Assembly (NCBI GenBank): GCA_028278645.1
Contig: JANQDZ010000076.1
Coordinates: 1-64,000 of the forward strand
Length of the DNA: 64,000 bases
Direction of reading: 5' to 3'
DNA from: Longimicrobiales bacterium
GTDB lineage: Bacteria; Gemmatimonadota; Gemmatimonadetes; Longimicrobiales; Gaopeijiaceae
Under the pieces are notes generated by a model, which did no database searches, had not been told where the DNA came from, and saw only the letters and a list, made by a program, of their open reading frames with translations. Made by a program: the position numbers and the translations under genes. Below, piece by piece: positions 12,893-26,777 of this stretch; positions within the stretch are counted from its first letter, which is position 1, and each line of letters starts with the position of its first letter.

Positions 12893-13279
12893 GTGAGCGA
12901 ATCCAAGAGCATTGGATCCATAGCCTGGACCGACCTGTCCGTCCCGGACGCCGGGGAGCTCAAGGAGTTCTACAAACAGGTGGTAGGGTGGGATTCCGGC
13001 TCGGTCTCCATGGGTGACTACGACGACTTCACCATGATCCCCCCAGGTACCGACACCCCGGCGGCTGGGATTTGCCACGCCAAGGGTGTCAACGCCGATC
13101 TTCCCCCCGTGTGGCTCATCTACATCGTGGTGGCGAACCTGGAAGAGAGCCTGGCCGCGTGCACCGCCGGCGGCGGAGAAGTGTTGGTGGGGCCGAAGGG
13201 GATGGGCCCAGGGTCATCCTACGCCGTCATCCGTGACCCGGCTGGCGCGGTCTCAGCTCTCTATCAGGTGGGCAGCTAG
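12893..13279 (+). CDS. Single-domain VOC protein
   Basis: A 128-residue glyoxalase-fold protein. The first strand (IAWTDLSVPD, about 9-18), the L-x-x-FY-K-x-V-x-GW motif (about 22-33) and the closing DPAGA (about 113-117) place it in the same VOC branch as the two-domain protein at 6121. The start is GTG at 12893, supported by TGGAGG about 6 bases upstream. Its 3' end overlaps the convergent membrane-protein gene by 27 bases. Substrate unknown. Confidence 0.82.
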   Translation: MSESKSIGSIAWTDLSVPDAGELKEFYKQVVGWDSGSVSMGDYDDFTMIPPGTDTPAAGICHAKGVNADLPPVWLIYIVVANLEESLAACTAGGGEVLVGPKGMGPGSSYAVIRDPAGAVSALYQVGS

Positions 13280-14164
13280 AGCCGGAAGGTCCTGGCCACT
13301 CACATCGACGGCCTGGACCCCCTCCACCTGGCTGTAGTCCAACTCACTCCCCCGGAGGCTGTGGGGGATCAGATAAACGGCCATCATCACTGCTGCTGCA
13401 GCGAGGATCGATCCCCTGCCGACCCAGTCATCCTCGGACTTCCGACGGGACAGGATCACAACCACCCCCACCCAGACGATCCACATGATGAGGGTTTTGT
13501 TGTCCGTCAGATCGTATCCGAAAGGCCACCCCGTCCAGAAGGCTCCGAACGCATATTTCTGCACAATGGGGCCCAGGATCATCCCCCCGACAGTCATGAG
13601 CCCCAGGGTCGTCCAGACCAAGCGCTTGAGGCCCGTCGGATGGACAGCCGCGCCCAGAGCGGTGCGAACTCCAACCAGAAGCCCAATGAACATGCAGATG
13701 ATATGCGGGACCAGAAAACCGAGGGGTACGGGGTCTTTGTATCTGAGGATGAGGGTCTCTTCCTCGGGAATCCTCGTGGTTCCCTCCGCGGACTCCAACA
13801 CCACGTAGTACTCCAGCTTCCCTGCGGCCGGTTGGACCGGAAGGACCGCTTGAAGATCTCCGGCCACCGATTCCATGGGGATCGGCGAGAACGGGTCATT
13901 GGTGGGATACCGTTTGAAAAAAACCGTCCCGGTGAGGTCCGATCCCGGATCCGGGACCAGGATCGGAGCACCAGCATCGGTATTCCCACTCCGAAGGAGC
14001 TCGAAAGGATACTCCACGCCACCTGACTCGAAGGATCCTTTGAACTCCTTGGTCGGCCCGGTACGTTCCTGGTATTCGGCAGCGTAGAACATGATTCCCA
14101 CCGCCGCGGCCCAGAGGACCCAGGGCACCCATCCCCGCTTGGGGCTTTGCTCGCCGTTTGACAT
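13253..14164 (-). CDS. Multi-helix membrane protein, unknown function
   Basis: About 303 residues from the Met at 14164; earlier in-frame starts reach 14200. One N-terminal transmembrane helix (about 13-28) is followed by a roughly 120-residue beta-rich extracytoplasmic domain, then five helices (about 155-175, 187-208, 225-245, 256-275) and a soluble C-terminus. I do not recognise the family. The arrangement of an outside domain between an anchor and a helical bundle suggests a sensor or assembly protein rather than an enzyme. Divergent from the class V enzyme at 14266. Confidence 0.6.
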   Translation of the reverse strand: MSNGEQSPKRGWVPWVLWAAAVGIMFYAAEYQERTGPTKEFKGSFESGGVEYPFELLRSGNTDAGAPILVPDPGSDLTGTVFFKRYPTNDPFSPIPMESVAGDLQAVLPVQPAAGKLEYYVVLESAEGTTRIPEEETLILRYKDPVPLGFLVPHIICMFIGLLVGVRTALGAAVHPTGLKRLVWTTLGLMTVGGMILGPIVQKYAFGAFWTGWPFGYDLTDNKTLIMWIVWVGVVVILSRRKSEDDWVGRGSILAAAAVMMAVYLIPHSLRGSELDYSQVEGVQAVDVSGQDLPALAAHLIES

Positions 14165-14265
14165 AACCCGTAGAATGTCCACTTCAGGAATCTGCATCAA
14201 CCCCGAACTGGGAGCCTGAGTGCTCCGCCTCCCCGGCCCTCAGGCTGGAGAACAAAGAGAACCCC

Positions 14266-20520: not shown

Positions 20521-21309
20521 CTAACCCTCGTCCTCTTTCGAGCCCGGAGGGAGGGCAGTCCTCTCCACCGCTCTTGATACGCTGTCCATCATGCGGGTGA
20601 GGCGATTTCGGAACTTCCGGGAGCTGGCGGCCCATATGCTCCGGGCCGTGAGAAACCCGGCCCCTAAGGTTCCGGTCACCAGGGAAATGATGGCCAACGC
20701 CGAGGTGGGCTCGAAGCTGGCGCCCAGGATTCCCACCAGAACCGCGGAACCCATCATGGGGAAGATGAACGTGACGCCACCGGCTGCCCCCCGATTCCCG
20801 ACGATTTGAACGGAGGTGCTATCGCCCCGTGGGGAAATGTTCACGTTGATGGCGCTGAGCTCGCCAACCGTCTTCCACTCCACACCACCCAGGACCTCGG
20901 AGGCCTCACCCTGGTGTTCTGCGGCCCGCCGGATTTCCTCCAGGATCCGCCCCATCTCTTCCGGCGGGAGGGAGCCGGGGATCTCACAGTCCAGGTGGTA
21001 CGTGTCCGGCCCCCCGAAGATAGACGCGGCCAGGCCAGATTTCTCCTCCCAGTCCAGGGCCCCGATGATGGAAGCCGCTCGGGTGACCGCCTCCGGATCG
21101 ATCCCGGCTTCCCCGGCGATGGACTGAATCTCGTCCAGGGTTAATCCCGCAGGCCCCGGCTTTCCGGCCTGGGAGCCGTCGGCAACCTGGATCTCTGAGG
21201 CCTTTCGAAGGATGAGAGCGAATTCCTCCTCCGAATAACGTCTCTTTTTAGCGTCGTCGTTTCCCACCGCTGATCGGATCTCCCCATTAGAGGGACTCGG
21301 AGGACTCAC
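20521..21309 (-). CDS. Two-helix membrane protein linked to the RDase-like gene
   Basis: A 262-residue protein with a soluble N-terminal half and two C-terminal helices (about 178-200 and 205-230). The N-terminus has RRYSEEEFALILRKASEIQ and then LTLDEIQSIAGEAGIDPEAV, a pattern seen in many uncharacterised proteins of Gemmatimonadota and Bacteroidota. Its start overlaps the stop of the RDase-like gene by 4 bases (ATGA), so the two are translationally coupled. I cannot assign a function; a membrane partner of the Fe-S protein is one possibility. Confidence 0.65.
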   Translation of the reverse strand: MSPPSPSNGEIRSAVGNDDAKKRRYSEEEFALILRKASEIQVADGSQAGKPGPAGLTLDEIQSIAGEAGIDPEAVTRAASIIGALDWEEKSGLAASIFGGPDTYHLDCEIPGSLPPEEMGRILEEIRRAAEHQGEASEVLGGVEWKTVGELSAINVNISPRGDSTSVQIVGNRGAAGGVTFIFPMMGSAVLVGILGASFEPTSALAIISLVTGTLGAGFLTARSIWAASSRKFRNRLTRMMDSVSRAVERTALPPGSKEDEG

Positions 21310-22844
21310 TCCCTGGTGTTCTTACGTTCGAGTTTTGCCTCAGATTCAGTGAAACGCATCCATTCGAGCTCTTCCCGGGGTTGGGGGCGGCGGCCATAAA
21401 GGGCGTCGTCCATGGCCAGGGCGGCGCTGCGGAGGAGGGCGTTTCGTCGGATCCCCCATCGGACAAGGGAATGCATGGCATTGTCCGGATGAGAGTAGGG
21501 GCAAACGGCCATACAGCGCGCACAGTCCGTTCCTAAGCGTCCCCAGAGGGTGAAGCAGGCCTCATGGTCTATTCTCCATCGAAGGACGCCATTTCCGTCC
21601 TCCTGAGGCTCCTCGAAGGAGATAGCCCTGCTGGGACAACATTCCGCGCACTTCTTACACCTCGAGCAGAAATCCACCACGGTGGGATCGGGTGCCGGCT
21701 CGTCTACGGAAAGAGGGAGGTTTGTGGTCACAACGGCGATTCTGACCCTCGGCCCGAGCCTGGGTGTCATGAGCAAACCCATGCGCCCGAACTCACCGAG
21801 GCCGGCGTCCTTCGCCACCAGGGGGCAAATCACCCTGTAGTGCCCGTCCACGTGGGCCCTGGCGCTGTATCCCAGGCGCCTGATGAGATCCGCCACCTGG
21901 ACCGCCATGACCCCGCCCCGCAGGTACTGAAGCGCCGATTCCATGGCTGTGGGGCTTTTGGGAGCCCTGTCCACCATTTCCTTGTCCATCTCGACGGTCA
22001 AGGCCATGGCAAAGGTGTGGTCCAACTCCACCGGACTCCCGTATTCGGGACCCCGTCCAACCGTGGTGTAGAGGTGGTGGGCCCGAAGCGCGGTTATCCC
22101 CACGGAGTGGGCACCCATCTTGAGCGTCCATTCCTTGAGGAACCGGCTCATCTCGGCCGGGTCCCTCGAAACCCGCCCCTTCTCGGCCCCCTCCCGGACC
22201 ACCTCCCCGCCAAGCTTCGTGGCGGTTTGGTCAGGAGTGCCGTCCTTTTCCGTTGGAGATTCTGATGGATCCCCCTCCTCCCAACCCGATTCACCGCCTT
22301 CCACAAAAGGACGCAGCAGCTCTATGGTCCAGAACGCCGCATCGGCCGCGGCGAAGCCCTCCCGATGGAAATGGGCCGAGTCGGGTGAAAGCAACCCGGG
22401 TTCCGCCCTGAATCCATCGTCTGGGCCCCTGAGGTGTGGGTGGGACCGATAGTACTCGTCGAACCGTTCTGTGCCGGGAACCAGGGTCGCCCTGGAGAAC
22501 ATGACGTCCCGTTCGTCCACGCCGGGCACCGGCTCTCCGAGTCTGATGAGCCCCCCCCCTGGGAAAGGGAAGAGGAAAACGAGAGCACCAACAATCACGG
22601 CAAGGACGAGGAGCGTAGCCAGCCAACGGCCGACGCCCATAGGGAGGAAGATCGGGAGAAGAAAAACCACCAGGACGGTAATGGATATAAGTCCAAGTCG
22701 GACTGAGGCTTGGGGCTCTCCTTCCCTCCTCGAAACCCAAGCGGTCCAAAGGAGGACCAGGAAGATCAACTCTCCCAGGATCGCCGACAGGAGGGGCATG
22801 TCAGACATTCCGAATCCCATCGAGGATCCCCACCCACTGGTCAT
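21306..22844 (-). CDS. Membrane-anchored reductive-dehalogenase-like Fe-S protein
   Basis: A 512-residue protein. Three hydrophobic helices fill residues about 16-37, 48-68 and 72-93, replacing the Tat signal of classical reductive dehalogenases. Then VDERDVMFSRA, PGTERFDEYY and a nitroreductase-like region with AGLGEFGRMGLLMTP (about 358-372) match the cobalamin-binding RdhA/QueG superfamily. Two ferredoxin clusters close it: C-x2-C-x2-C-x3-CP (CSRCKKCAECCP, about 401-412) and C-x10-C-x2-C-x3-CP ending CMAVCPYSHP. The family reduces carbon-halogen bonds with a corrinoid cofactor; the substrate here is unknown and activity is inferred. No separate rdhB anchor is present or needed. It overlaps both neighbours by 4 bases. 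Confidence 0.82.
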   Translation of the reverse strand: MTSGWGSSMGFGMSDMPLLSAILGELIFLVLLWTAWVSRREGEPQASVRLGLISITVLVVFLLPIFLPMGVGRWLATLLVLAVIVGALVFLFPFPGGGLIRLGEPVPGVDERDVMFSRATLVPGTERFDEYYRSHPHLRGPDDGFRAEPGLLSPDSAHFHREGFAAADAAFWTIELLRPFVEGGESGWEEGDPSESPTEKDGTPDQTATKLGGEVVREGAEKGRVSRDPAEMSRFLKEWTLKMGAHSVGITALRAHHLYTTVGRGPEYGSPVELDHTFAMALTVEMDKEMVDRAPKSPTAMESALQYLRGGVMAVQVADLIRRLGYSARAHVDGHYRVICPLVAKDAGLGEFGRMGLLMTPRLGPRVRIAVVTTNLPLSVDEPAPDPTVVDFCSRCKKCAECCPSRAISFEEPQEDGNGVLRWRIDHEACFTLWGRLGTDCARCMAVCPYSHPDNAMHSLVRWGIRRNALLRSAALAMDDALYGRRPQPREELEWMRFTESEAKLERKNTRE

Positions 22845-24124
22845 GCATGGTAAGCCACCCCCTCCACCGCAGCGTCCACCTCATCCATGGTGTTGTACAG
22901 GTGCGGGGAGAGGCGGATCCCGTCGAAGGCCCCGCCCATGGCCGCACATCCAAGATTGTGGGTCTCATACACCGCCTCGAAGACCTCTCTGTGGGCCCCC
23001 GATGGGATGGCGAACACGACAACTCCACCTGCCAAGTCAGGAGATCGCGGAGTGTGGAAGCGTACCCCGGGAATCGCCGCAACCAGCCGTTCTTTGACGG
23101 CCGAAGCCAGCGCGGAGACCCGGGCTTCAATGGCGGCGGGCCCGATGGCCTCATGGAAGGCGGCGGCGTTCCCCATGGTCACCACCGCCGCATCGTCACG
23201 TTGCCCCATGTTTTCGAACTTCTGGGCTCCGTTGGCCTCTGCCCCCTCCCAGCCAACCCCCACATCAGATGGCCAAAGACGGTCCTGGCTCTCCTCCCTC
23301 ACAAACAGGAGACCAGCCTCCTTCGGCCCTACAAACCACTTGTGGGAACTCCCTGTGAAGAAATCGCAACCGAGATCGTGTAGATCCAGGTCAAGGAACC
23401 CGAAAGTCTGGGCTCCATCCACGAGGGTGAGTATCCCCTGTTCCCGAGCAATAGCGCAAAGCTCCTTCCCGGGCAGCCTGACTCCTGAGACGTTCGAGAG
23501 GTGGCTGAACGACAGCACACGGGTCCGATCGGTCAGAGCCGAGGCAAAGGATTCCAAAAGCTCGGCCGAATCCTCCGAACCCGGGGGGGTCGAAACCCGC
23601 TGAACGGAGAACCCCCGTCGGCGAGCCCGAACGTCCCAAGACACGTTGTTGGTGGGATGGTTCTGATCCCAGAGCACGACCTCGTCCCCGGGCCCCAGGT
23701 CGAGGCCATTCACAACCGAGTTATTCCCTTCAGACGTGTTCCGCGTGATGGCGATCTCCGACGGGGACGCGCCCACGTAGTCGGCCAGCGCTTGCCGCGC
23801 TTCTTCCTTCAAGCCGCCGAACTTCCCCCGGTTCTGGAAAGAGGCATCCCGGTTCACGTCCCGCGTGTGACCGAAGACTGCCTCCTGAATCGGATACGGA
23901 GAGGGACAGAGGTTCGCCGCGTTCATGAGGATCAGGCCCGGGGCGATGGAGAACTGGTCTTTCACCCTCTTCCAGAACCCTTCGTCTTCCGGGCCCCGTG
24001 CGGCGCCGTGGGAAACCGACATCCCGAGAGGGGAGGCCCCTTCAAGGAGTCCGGGGAATGCCAGAGTGGCGGCGGTCCCACCCAGGAGACGGGAGAGAAA
24101 CCGGCGACGATCCGTGAAGGACAT
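22841..24124 (-). CDS. Tat-exported class V PLP enzyme (isopenicillin-N-epimerase-like)
   Basis: A 427-residue fold-type-I PLP enzyme. The ATG at 24124 follows AGGAGG and gives a twin-arginine signal peptide (DRRRFLSRLLGG), so this PLP enzyme is predicted to be exported. Motifs are NAANLCPSP, ITRNTSEGNN (about 135-144), VDGAQTFG (about 239-246) and the PLP-lysine segment GSSHKWFVGPKE (about 260-271). The class includes cysteine desulfurases and epimerases; the reaction is unknown. Its last 4 bases overlap the RDase-like gene. It is divergent from cydAB, with 149 bases between the two starts. Confidence 0.86.
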   Translation of the reverse strand: MSFTDRRRFLSRLLGGTAATLAFPGLLEGASPLGMSVSHGAARGPEDEGFWKRVKDQFSIAPGLILMNAANLCPSPYPIQEAVFGHTRDVNRDASFQNRGKFGGLKEEARQALADYVGASPSEIAITRNTSEGNNSVVNGLDLGPGDEVVLWDQNHPTNNVSWDVRARRRGFSVQRVSTPPGSEDSAELLESFASALTDRTRVLSFSHLSNVSGVRLPGKELCAIAREQGILTLVDGAQTFGFLDLDLHDLGCDFFTGSSHKWFVGPKEAGLLFVREESQDRLWPSDVGVGWEGAEANGAQKFENMGQRDDAAVVTMGNAAAFHEAIGPAAIEARVSALASAVKERLVAAIPGVRFHTPRSPDLAGGVVVFAIPSGAHREVFEAVYETHNLGCAAMGGAFDGIRLSPHLYNTMDEVDAAVEGVAYHA

Positions 24125-24273: not shown

Positions 24274-25731
24274 ATGGATCCTGCGCTGTTCTTCCATCGG
24301 TTCCACTTCGCCTTCACGATCTCATTCCATTACCTCTTCCCTCAGTTCACGATGGGGATGGGGCTCCTCATCGTCATCCTGAAAACGAAGGCGCTGAGGA
24401 CCGGAGACGAACGGTTTGAAAAGGCCGCCCGTTTCTGGGGGAAAATCTTCGGTTTGGCCTTCGCCATGGGAGTGGTCACCGGTATCCCCATGGAATTCCA
24501 GTTCGGAACCAACTGGGCACGATTCTCCGAAGCAACAGGAGGAGTGATCGGTCAAACGCTGGCCATGGAAGGGGTTTTTGCGTTCTTCCTCGAGTCATCC
24601 TTCTTGGGGCTGTTCCTCTTTGGTCACAAAAGACTCAGCCCCCGGATGCACTGGTTCTCGGCATTCGCTGTATTCGCAGGATCGTGGATTTCGGGGTTCT
24701 TCATTGTGGCCACCAACGCGTTCATGCAGCACCCGGTCGGCTATGAGATCCAGCCGGACGGGATGCTGGCCCTGACTAGCTATTGGTCTCTTCTGCTGAA
24801 TCCATGGCTCCTCTGGCAGTACCTGCACACCATGACCGGCGCGGTGGTGACCGGGTCGTTCGTTATGGCAGGGATCGGAGCGTACTACCTCCTCCTGGGA
24901 CAGAGGACAGATGCGTCTCCGGAAGCTCGCCTCCACGCGGAGTACGGGAAGGTGTTCGTCAAACTCGGGGTCCTCGTGGGGCTTCCGGCGTCGGTCCTGG
25001 TAGCGTTCCCCACAGGAGACATGCAGGCCGTGAACGTGGCGGAGCACCAACCTGCGGCCTTCGCCTCCATGGAGGGGTTATTCGACACCGAAGAAGGGGC
25101 TCCCCTGGTTCTCATAGGCCAGCCGGACATGGAGAACATGCGGCTGGACAATCCCATCGAAGTCCCGAGGATACTGAGCTTCCTGACCTACCGGCGCTTC
25201 GATGCCGAGGTGGTGGGGTTGAAAGACATCCCGAGGGACCAGTGGCCAGACAACGTCCCCCTGCACTACTACGCTTATCACATCATGGTGGGCCTGGGAA
25301 CTCTGTTCATCGGCACCATGTTGTTGGCCGCATGGCTCTTATTGAGGCGAAAGCTCTTCCGGTCCAGAGCCATGTTGTGGGCCCTCATGTTCGCAGCTCC
25401 GTTCCCCTTTATCGCCAACACCACGGGATGGATGACCGCTGAGCTGGGCCGACAACCCTGGCTCGTCTACGGCGTCCTCCGGACCGAGGACGGCTACTCC
25501 GCAACGGTGTCCGCTGGAAACGCTATCTTCAGCCTCTTGGGATTCATGGGTCTCTACCTCCTTTTGGGGATCCTCTTCCTCTTCCTGGCCGCACGGGAGG
25601 TTGGGCACGGCCCAGGGGGACACGGGACCTCTCCGCATGACTCGGAAAGAGGGGACGGAGGGTCCGAAGGCGGCGGCGCAGGAGGGTTACCGCATACCGA
25701 CATTCCATCCGCCTTCAACGAGGGGAGGTAA
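24274..25731 (+). CDS. cydA: Cytochrome bd quinol oxidase subunit I
   Basis: A 485-residue polytopic inner-membrane subunit that oxidises quinol and carries hemes b558, b595 and d. The axial ligand His19 is conserved (ISFHYLFP), His near 186 lies in YLHTMTGA, and the Met ligand lies in GWMTAELGRQPW. At 485 residues it belongs to the short-Q-loop group (E. coli CydA is 522). It is 2 bases upstream of cydB. The operon reduces oxygen with high affinity and is often induced under low oxygen or nitrosative stress; no operator is obvious in the 149-base divergent gap. Confidence 0.97.
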   Translation: MDPALFFHRFHFAFTISFHYLFPQFTMGMGLLIVILKTKALRTGDERFEKAARFWGKIFGLAFAMGVVTGIPMEFQFGTNWARFSEATGGVIGQTLAMEGVFAFFLESSFLGLFLFGHKRLSPRMHWFSAFAVFAGSWISGFFIVATNAFMQHPVGYEIQPDGMLALTSYWSLLLNPWLLWQYLHTMTGAVVTGSFVMAGIGAYYLLLGQRTDASPEARLHAEYGKVFVKLGVLVGLPASVLVAFPTGDMQAVNVAEHQPAAFASMEGLFDTEEGAPLVLIGQPDMENMRLDNPIEVPRILSFLTYRRFDAEVVGLKDIPRDQWPDNVPLHYYAYHIMVGLGTLFIGTMLLAAWLLLRRKLFRSRAMLWALMFAAPFPFIANTTGWMTAELGRQPWLVYGVLRTEDGYSATVSAGNAIFSLLGFMGLYLLLGILFLFLAAREVGHGPGGHGTSPHDSERGDGGSEGGGAGGLPHTDIPSAFNEGR

Positions 25732-25733
25732 CC

Positions 25734-26777
25734 ATGGAGACGCTCTGGTTCTACCTCGTTGCGGCGATGGTGGCGGTATACGTAGTCCTGGATGGGTTCG
25801 ACCTGGGAACCGGCGCCCTCCACCTCTTCATTGCGCGGACCGATCCCGAGCGCCGAACAGTCCTCCAGAGCATCGGGCCCGTATGGGACGGGAATGAAGT
25901 GTGGTTGCTGGCCGGCGGGGGGGCCATGGTCCTGGCATTTCCCAGGTTGTACGCCTCGGGATTCAGCGGATTTTATCTCCCGCTGATGATGGTCCTTTGG
26001 CTCCTCATTCTACGGGCGATCTCCATCGAGTTCCGGAGCCATCTTAAAAGTCCTATATGGCGCCCTATCTGGGACGTTGTTTTTTCCGTGTCCAGTCTGC
26101 TGCTGACGATTTTCCTGGGAGCGGCCCTGGGGAACGTGGTGCGCGGGGTCCCCCTGGGAGAAGACGGGTACTTTTTTGCGCCGCTGTGGACGTCCTTCAG
26201 GCCAACCGGGTCGGACCTCGGAATCCTGGACTGGTATACCCTGACGGTGGGTCTGGCCAGTTTCCTGGCCCTCACCTATCACGGCGCCATGTGGGTAATC
26301 CTGAAAACCGAGGGCGAGATCCGTGAACGGGCGAAAAGAGCCGCTCGGTGGACCTGGCCTCCCCTCCTTCTCTTCGTAGCCTTGGTGACGTTCTCTACTT
26401 TCCTCGTTCAGCCGCAGGTGGCAGAACGCATGAACGGCACCCCTGTCGCCTACCTGCTCCCCCTGGTTGCTCTGGGCGGAATCCTATCCAGCCGTCGGTT
26501 CATGGCCGGCGGAAGAGAGTTGGCCTCATTCCTGGGGTCGGCTGCATTCCTGGTCTTTATGCTCATGAGCGTGGTGTTCGGGCTCTACCCCATGGTCCTT
26601 CCGGCCGCAGGGGACCCGGCAGCGTCACTGACCGTTTTTAACGCCGCTGGACCACCCTACGCACTGCGGGTGGCCCTGTTCTGGTGGATTCCCGGGATGA
26701 TCCTGGTGGTGGGTTACACCACCTTCATCTATCGGCAGATGGCAGGTAAGGTAGAGCTGGACACAGACGGGTACTAA
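25734..26777 (+). CDS. cydB: Cytochrome bd quinol oxidase subunit II
   Basis: A 347-residue inner-membrane subunit, slightly shorter than E. coli CydB (379). The N-terminal LDGFDLGTGALH (about 18-29) and WDGNEVW (about 48-54) are family hallmarks, with eight or nine hydrophobic helices. It begins 2 bases after the cydA stop, behind AGGGGAGG-like sequence. No cydX micropeptide gene follows: the next gene is a DinB homologue on the other strand whose stop lies 19 bases away. cydDC are not in the window. Confidence 0.96.
   Translation: METLWFYLVAAMVAVYVVLDGFDLGTGALHLFIARTDPERRTVLQSIGPVWDGNEVWLLAGGGAMVLAFPRLYASGFSGFYLPLMMVLWLLILRAISIEFRSHLKSPIWRPIWDVVFSVSSLLLTIFLGAALGNVVRGVPLGEDGYFFAPLWTSFRPTGSDLGILDWYTLTVGLASFLALTYHGAMWVILKTEGEIRERAKRAARWTWPPLLLFVALVTFSTFLVQPQVAERMNGTPVAYLLPLVALGGILSSRRFMAGGRELASFLGSAAFLVFMLMSVVFGLYPMVLPAAGDPAASLTVFNAAGPPYALRVALFWWIPGMILVVGYTTFIYRQMAGKVELDTDGY

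What the first reader, a model, noticed from the sequence alone, without database searches (positions are those of the whole stretch)
20521..24124. Membrane-anchored reductive-dehalogenase-like protein in a tightly coupled three-gene unit
Seen: a 512-residue protein with three N-terminal helices, an AGLGEFGRMGLLMTP segment and two clusters of four Cys (C-x2-C-x2-C-x3-CP; C-x10-C-x2-C-x3-CP). It overlaps a Tat-exported class V PLP enzyme upstream and a two-helix protein downstream, each by 4 bases. Known: RdhA enzymes use a corrinoid and two Fe-S clusters, usually with a Tat signal and a separate RdhB anchor. Inference: the three form a membrane redox module, in which the exported PLP enzyme might supply or process a substrate. 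The pairing with a PLP enzyme is, to my knowledge, not a described dehalogenation system.
Basis: partly seen in the sequence, partly recalled or inferred. Interest (0 to 1): 0.75.

Follow-up and report, generated by a model that had tools for sequence, protein, structure and literature searches.

The report
Transmembrane reductive dehalogenase in a Gemmatimonadota
This is a cobalamin/iron-sulfur enzyme that probably strips halogens from organic molecules while tethered to the cell membrane; it belongs to a known but biochemically untested subfamily, and its neighbouring secreted PLP enzyme is a local, lineage-specific companion rather than part of a new dehalogenation system.

Summary
The 512-aa protein (21306-22844, minus strand) is a reductive dehalogenase relative: TIGR02486 153 bits against 37 for QueG; VIA-align Z 34 to NpRdhA and PceA against 15 for QueG. 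The catalytic Tyr and Arg (Y307, R368) and all eight cluster cysteines are present. Three N-terminal helices, an ExE motif, no Tat signal and no adjacent RdhB make it a member of the 'hybrid' or 'transmembrane' RdhA subfamily (PMC6797604; PMC10463259); a tree places it inside that clade (100/99). The trio as a unit is not conserved: the 262-aa protein belongs to a paralogous family kept only in the same genus. The Tat-PLP enzyme sits beside the RDase in three genomes of one family but is common without it, and no hybrid outside that family has it alongside. New inference: charges flanking the helices (47 Lys/Arg in the ExE loop against 3 in the N-terminus plus second loop, 15 sequences) put the catalytic domain on the cytoplasmic side, opposite the exported PLP enzyme. 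Residues matching PceA's menaquinone site are conserved. Likely a cytoplasm-facing quinol-fed dehalogenase; a new member of a known kind.

The parts
21306..22844 (-). transmembrane ('hybrid') RdhA-type reductive dehalogenase, 512 aa (start could be an internal ATG at 22820 or 22808)
   Evidence: TIGR02486 E 1.5e-44; PDB NpRdhA 9e-44; model Z 34 to NpRdhA and PceA; tree
22725..22808 (-). transmembrane helix 1 (residues 13-40)
   Evidence: model helix; hydropathy
22716..22724 (-). ExE motif E41-G-E43 in the Arg/Lys-rich loop between helices 1 and 2
   Evidence: E41 invariant in 15 hybrids, E43 in 9 of 15; 47 K/R in this loop over 15 sequences
22647..22715 (-). transmembrane helix 2 (residues 44-66)
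22572..22640 (-). transmembrane helix 3 (residues 69-91)
21924..21926 (-). Y307, equivalent of catalytic Tyr (SmPceA Y246, NpRdhA Y426)
   Evidence: profile alignment to PDB chains; invariant
21741..21743 (-). R368, equivalent of SmPceA R305 / NpRdhA K488
   Evidence: invariant
21633..21668 (-). [4Fe-4S] motif 1, C393-x2-C396-x2-C399-x3-C403-P
   Evidence: Fer4_7
21498..21557 (-). [4Fe-4S] motif 2, C430-x10-C441-x2-C444-x3-C448-P
21396..21491 (-). two C-terminal helices with H452, H458, R462, D479, Y483, matching K489/H495/R499/D515/Y520 of the PceA menaquinone site
   Evidence: alignment to 8q4h; site residues from PMC10624902; conservation
22841..24124 (-). Tat-exported class V PLP enzyme, nearest characterised relative PvdN; neighbour, probably co-transcribed
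   Evidence: PF00266 8e-46; NF051467 156 bits of cut-off 650; 5i90; adjacency in G000, G001, G351 only
20521..21309 (-). 262-aa two-helix protein of a Gemmatimonadota paralogous family; neighbour in one genus only
   Evidence: no Pfam match; 5 copies in own genome, 8 matches in the congener

Best explanation
The gene encodes a member of the transmembrane ('hybrid') RdhA subfamily of reductive dehalogenases. Shown by sequence and model: the class III cobalamin/2x[4Fe-4S] fold, an intact catalytic Tyr and Arg, three N-terminal helices with the ExE motif, no Tat signal, no adjacent RdhB. Inferred: the catalytic domain lies on the cytoplasmic side; menaquinol docks between the membrane helices and the two C-terminal helices (H458/R462/D479/Y483) and passes electrons through the two clusters to a salvaged cobamide, which reductively removes a halogen from an organohalide inside the cell. 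The exported PLP enzyme is a co-transcribed, lineage-specific neighbour that acts on the other side of the membrane on something else; the 262-aa protein is unrelated. Confidence in the subfamily assignment alone is about 0.93; the figure below is for the whole mechanism.
For: TIGR02486 153 bits against QueG 37. phmmer NpRdhA 9e-44 and PceA 2e-34 against QueG 1e-5. AlphaFold model (pLDDT 79) with VIA-align Z 30-34 to NpRdhA and both PceA structures and Z 15 to QueG. Y307 and R368 align with SmPceA Y246 and R305 and are invariant across 19 sequences including two canonical RdhAs. H452/H458/R462/Y483 are invariant in 15 hybrids and D479 is D in 14 of 15; the TMH-less Clostridium relatives have lost H452/H458/R462/D479. 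Charge asymmetry: N-terminus 1, ExE loop 47, loop two 2 Lys/Arg over 15 sequences. TMH-less members without any signal (Clostridium L044/L045, Gemmatimonadota L105) nest inside the clade, as expected if the catalytic domain was always cytoplasmic. B12 use without CobS.
Against: The score lies just under TIGR02486's cut-off of 160 (148.9-153), and PF13486 does not match; of the two canonical RdhAs of this genome, one has only a sub-threshold PF13486 match and the other none, so that Pfam model is insensitive here. No hybrid RDase had been shown to be functional according to PMC9303371. In PceB the ExE loop lies between helices 2 and 3 and on the outside; here it lies between helices 1 and 2, so equivalence of the helices is not assured. 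G351's homologue has lost the helices but keeps the quinone-site residues.
Confidence: 0.55

Rival explanations
1. The PLP enzyme and the RDase form a functional pair: the exported PLP enzyme makes or tailors a halogenated amino-acid-like compound, or releases its product, and the RDase reduces it.
For: The pair is adjacent in all three hybrid-RDase genomes of the family (G000, G001, G351), and in G351 it is kept with an 8-nt overlap although cydAB, the 262-aa gene and the S9 gene are no longer beside it.
Against: PLP orthologues at 50-75% identity occur in many genomes without the RDase beside them, including G002 of the same genus. None of the Gemmatimonadota hybrids outside the family, and none of the hybrids of other phyla fetched, has this PLP gene next to it. 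The two proteins are predicted to be on opposite faces of the membrane.
Confidence: 0.15
2. A respiratory enzyme with its catalytic domain outside the membrane, i.e. a one-chain version of PceAB that conserves energy by a redox loop.
For: ExE motif and menaquinone-site residues as in PceAB; some hybrids are predicted exoplasmic in PMC6797604.
Against: No Tat signal on the RDase, strong positive charge in the ExE loop, almost none in the N-terminus and second loop; soluble signal-less members nest in the clade.
Confidence: 0.12
3. A cobalamin/Fe-S reductase of the same fold that does not act on organohalides but on another substrate (as QueG does on epoxyqueuosine).
For: No hybrid has a proven substrate; the gene mostly stands among changing neighbours.
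Against: The catalytic Tyr/Arg pair of dehalogenases is invariant, and structure and profile scores favour RdhA clearly over QueG.
Confidence: 0.18

Closest known systems
Hybrid / transmembrane RdhA subfamily (Atashgahi 2019, PMC6797604; named as one of four subfamilies in PMC10463259)
   Same: About 450-510 aa, three N-terminal TMHs, ExE in the first loop, two [4Fe-4S] motifs, no Tat, no rdhB; separate clade from other RDases.
   Different: Member in Gemmatimonadota, a phylum not in the 2019 table; PLP neighbour; a sister in the same family (G351) has lost its helices.
PceA2B2 menaquinol:organohalide oxidoreductase of Desulfitobacterium hafniense (8q4h, PMC10624902)
   Same: Fold (Z 33.8), catalytic Tyr/Arg, clusters, menaquinone-site residues H/R/D/Y, ExE motif.
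   Different: PceA is Tat-exported and anchored by separate PceB with ExE between helices 2 and 3 on the outside; here one chain, ExE between helices 1 and 2, predicted inside.
NpRdhA catabolic reductive dehalogenase (4ras)
   Same: Best sequence match; cytoplasmic location predicted; catalytic Tyr.
   Different: NpRdhA is soluble and longer, with a duplicated N-terminal domain and Lys at position 488.
PvdN, Tat-exported PLP enzyme of pyoverdine tailoring (5i90)
   Same: Neighbour gene: class V PLP fold, Tat signal, about 430 aa, SHKW lysine.
   Different: 156 bits against an equivalog cut-off of 650; no pyoverdine genes were looked for.
QueG epoxyqueuosine reductase
   Same: Class III cobalamin fold and cysteine motifs.
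   Different: 37 bits against a cut-off of 200; Z 15 against 34; the own genome carries a further, QueG-like match elsewhere (C36).

Membership tests
Reductive dehalogenase (RdhA) | Match to the RDH profile better than to QueG | tested here: met
   TIGR02486 E 1.5e-44, 153 bits against QueG 37 bits
Reductive dehalogenase (RdhA) | Match over the curated cut-off of TIGR02486 (an annotation threshold, not a biochemical property) | tested here: not met
   153.1 / 148.9 of 160.35 bits; the two canonical RdhAs of the same genome score 163 and 224
Reductive dehalogenase (RdhA) | Match to Pfam PF13486 | tested here: inconclusive
   No match for the window protein, but canonical RdhAs of the same genome also miss its cut-off
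Reductive dehalogenase (RdhA) | FeS1 CxxCxxCxxxCP and FeS2 with distal Cys and CxxCxxxCP | tested here: met
   C393/396/399/403 and C430/441/444/448
Reductive dehalogenase (RdhA) | Catalytic Tyr and Arg/Lys at the cobalamin site | tested here: met
   Y307 and R368 align with SmPceA Y246 and R305, NpRdhA Y426 and K488
Reductive dehalogenase (RdhA) | Binds cobamide and dehalogenates | not testable with these tools
   Needs purified protein
Transmembrane (hybrid) RdhA subfamily | Three N-terminal TMHs, no Tat signal | tested here: met
   no twin-arginine motif ahead of the first helix
[quoted passage not shown]
   E41-G-E43
Transmembrane (hybrid) RdhA subfamily | No adjacent rdhB | tested here: met
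   Neighbours are a PLP enzyme and a 262-aa protein without a Pfam match
Transmembrane (hybrid) RdhA subfamily | Clusters with hybrids apart from canonical RdhA | tested here: met
   25-row clade 100/99 holding the Ancylomarina member (a genus in the 2019 table) and excluding own canonical RdhAs
Canonical respiratory RdhA with RdhB | Tat signal and separate RdhB | tested here: not met
   the genome has two such operons elsewhere
QueG | Over the curated cut-off of TIGR00276 | tested here: not met
   37 of 200 bits
PvdN (for the neighbour) | Over the equivalog cut-off of NF051467 | tested here: not met
   156.5 of 650 bits

The most novel reading that the evidence does not exclude
Transmembrane RdhAs are an inside-out version of the PceA-PceB complex: catalytic domain, ExE loop and menaquinol site have all moved to the cytoplasmic face, so that they reduce organohalides inside the cell with electrons from the quinone pool. 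Such an enzyme would serve as an electron sink or for catabolism or detoxification, without the outward proton release of respiratory dehalogenases.
Probability: 0.4. Interest if true: 0.6.

Novelty: new member of a known kind. Interest (0 to 1): 0.35.

Why it matters
Transmembrane RdhAs are widespread in sediment bacteria, but no function has been shown, and even the side of the membrane is open. The alignment here gives a family-wide charge pattern and a conserved set of menaquinone-site residues that make both questions directly testable. A Gemmatimonadota genome with two canonical rdhAB-type pairs and a transmembrane RdhA also points to halogen cycling potential in a phylum that the papers found here hardly discuss for it.

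Tried and rejected
Selenocysteine or pseudogene in the congener (a TGA was flagged): rejected, the ORF is intact between its start and its terminal stop. A conserved trio: rejected. A class V PLP gene beside the Holophagae hybrid (L038): it is a NifS/IscS-type cysteine desulfurase, not an orthologue of the Tat enzyme. The PLP enzyme as a periplasmic cysteine desulfurase: not supported, the candidate Cys is not conserved in orthologues. PF13486 as arbiter: useless here, canonical RdhAs also miss its cut-off. VIA-align rows for the N-terminal helices matched only generic helical hairpins, so no fold statement is made for the membrane part. A literature search for a PLP enzyme linked with RdhA gave nothing relevant.
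Full report
What is there. On the minus strand at 20521-24124 three closely packed genes encode a Tat-exported class V PLP enzyme (22841-24124), a 512-aa RdhA-like protein (21306-22844) and a 262-aa protein with two helices (20521-21309). The 4-base overlap between the PLP gene and the RDase depends on the choice of start: the congener (L031/L083) begins its RDase about 20 nt behind the PLP stop, and the window has a well-placed alternative start at 22820. The overlap between the RDase and the 262-aa gene is conserved in the congener.

Family of the RDase. The best NCBIfam model is TIGR02486, reductive dehalogenase (E 1.5e-44, 153.1 bits, narrowly below the curated 160.35); QueG gets 37 bits of a cut-off of 200. 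In the PDB the order is NpRdhA (9e-44), SmPceA (2e-34), DhPceA (8e-29), then QueG (1e-5). PF13486 does not ring, but of the two canonical, Tat-bearing RdhAs of the same genome one has only a sub-threshold match and the other none, so this model cannot decide. An AlphaFold model from 15 aligned hybrids (pLDDT 79, pTM 0.78) has VIA-align Z 34.0 to NpRdhA, 33.8 to PceA of 8q4h, 30.5 to SmPceA and 15.3 to QueG. Y307 aligns with SmPceA Y246 and NpRdhA Y426, R368 with SmPceA R305 and NpRdhA K488; both are invariant over 19 sequences, as are the eight cluster cysteines.

Subfamily. RdhAs with three N-terminal helices, an ExE motif between helices 1 and 2, no Tat signal and no RdhB were described by Atashgahi in 2019 (PMC6797604) and are counted as the 'transmembrane' subfamily in PMC10463259. 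The window protein meets each of these features. Relatives at 35-76% identity were found in Gemmatimonadota, Acidobacteriota, Chlorobiota, Bacteroidota, Zixibacteria and, without helices, Clostridium. In a tree of 35 rows the hybrids form one clade (100/99) apart from the canonical RdhAs; the root of that tree is only a midpoint. The phylum sample gives hybrids in 12 of 395 genomes, scattered over four families. The Gemmatimonadota hybrids do not form one group: the Acidobacteriota row L032 (with L033, an unclassified bacterium) lies among them, which suggests horizontal transfer.

Neighbours. In the congener all neighbours are kept (cydAB, PLP, RDase, 262-aa, S9 peptidase). In G002, a third species of the genus (67% complete), cydAB-PLP is kept but a different gene follows the PLP, with no RDase there; its contig ends soon after, so the RDase could lie elsewhere in that genome. 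In G351, another genus of the family, PLP and RDase are still adjacent, with an 8-nt overlap, while cydAB, the 262-aa gene and S9 are not beside them; there the RDase has lost its helices. Outside this family no hybrid has the PLP gene beside it; the other neighbours found are a VKOR-thioredoxin protein (L032, L033, L109, L111), a sulfopyruvate decarboxylase-like subunit (L032, L033), a membrane protein without a family match (L043, L047), and genes that look unrelated. The PLP enzyme has orthologues at 50-75% identity in many family genomes in which no hybrid RDase was found. The 262-aa protein has five matches in the own genome and eight in the congener. So the trio is not a system; the PLP-RDase pair is a family-level association that may mean co-transcription or a modest functional link.

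Which side of the membrane. Over 15 hybrids the N-terminal stretch carries 1 Lys/Arg, the first loop (with ExE) 47, the second loop 2. By the positive-inside rule the first loop and therefore the catalytic domain are cytoplasmic. This agrees with the missing Tat signal and with signal-less, helix-less relatives nested in the clade (Clostridium, G351). The PLP enzyme has a conserved Tat motif and would act outside. This is inference, and PMC6797604 reports mixed predictions for individual hybrids.

Electron supply. In the PceA2B2 structure menaquinone sits between two C-terminal helices of PceA and PceB helices 2 and 3, near K489, H495, R499, D515 and Y520, with the PceB ExE loop close by on the outside (PMC10624902). 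In the hybrids H452, H458, R462 and Y483 are invariant and D479 is D in 14 of 15, in the matching positions; the last two matches (D479, Y483) need a one-residue shift that was read by eye. The TMH-less Clostridium relatives have lost all but the Tyr, while the TMH-less G351 protein keeps them. This supports quinol as the electron donor. In PceB the ExE loop follows helix 2, in the hybrids helix 1. If the parts are equivalent, the whole arrangement is turned over in the membrane, which is the most novel reading that the evidence leaves open.

Cofactor. The genome has B12-binding domains and a PduO-type adenosyltransferase but no CobS, compatible with corrinoid salvage in a 95.6% complete genome. 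No transporter search was made.

Verdict. A real, well-conserved enzyme of a known but biochemically uncharacterised subfamily; the claimed three-gene dehalogenation module is not supported.

Noticed in passing
L048 7000-10654 (own genome contig C39:243000-260000): Two canonical Tat-bearing RdhAs, each beside a small RdhB-like three-helix protein (one with EGE in its second loop); an organohalide-respiration-type gene set in a Gemmatimonadota genome.
   Followed up: partly
L105 1561-4126: In G351 the hybrid RDase has lost its three helices by what looks like a clean deletion, yet keeps the PLP neighbour and the quinone-site residues.
   Followed up: partly
L032 756-1997, L033 395-1699, L109 8053-9291, L111 4061-5299: A VKOR-thioredoxin fusion gene lies upstream of the hybrid RDase on the same strand in Acidobacteriota and Gemmatimonadota (adjacent or with one small ORF between); a quinone-linked thiol oxidase next to a presumed quinol-linked RDase.
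   Followed up: partly
13253-14200: A membrane protein without any Pfam or NCBIfam match has homologues directly upstream of the hybrid RDase in Zixibacteria (L043, L047) and near it in L105; it also occurs in genomes without a hybrid.
   Followed up: partly
L003, L004, L006-L009: A separate clade of RDase-like proteins in the same family (about 400-450 aa where the frame is clean, FERFSQK motif in those read), with no Tat motif seen in the stretches read.
   Followed up: no
24274-26777: Cytochrome bd oxidase genes (cydAB) lie divergently beside the PLP gene; kept across the three species of the genus.
   Followed up: no
L049 6800-7516: A short (238 aa) RDase-domain-like protein in the own genome, 62 bits to TIGR02486.
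   Followed up: no
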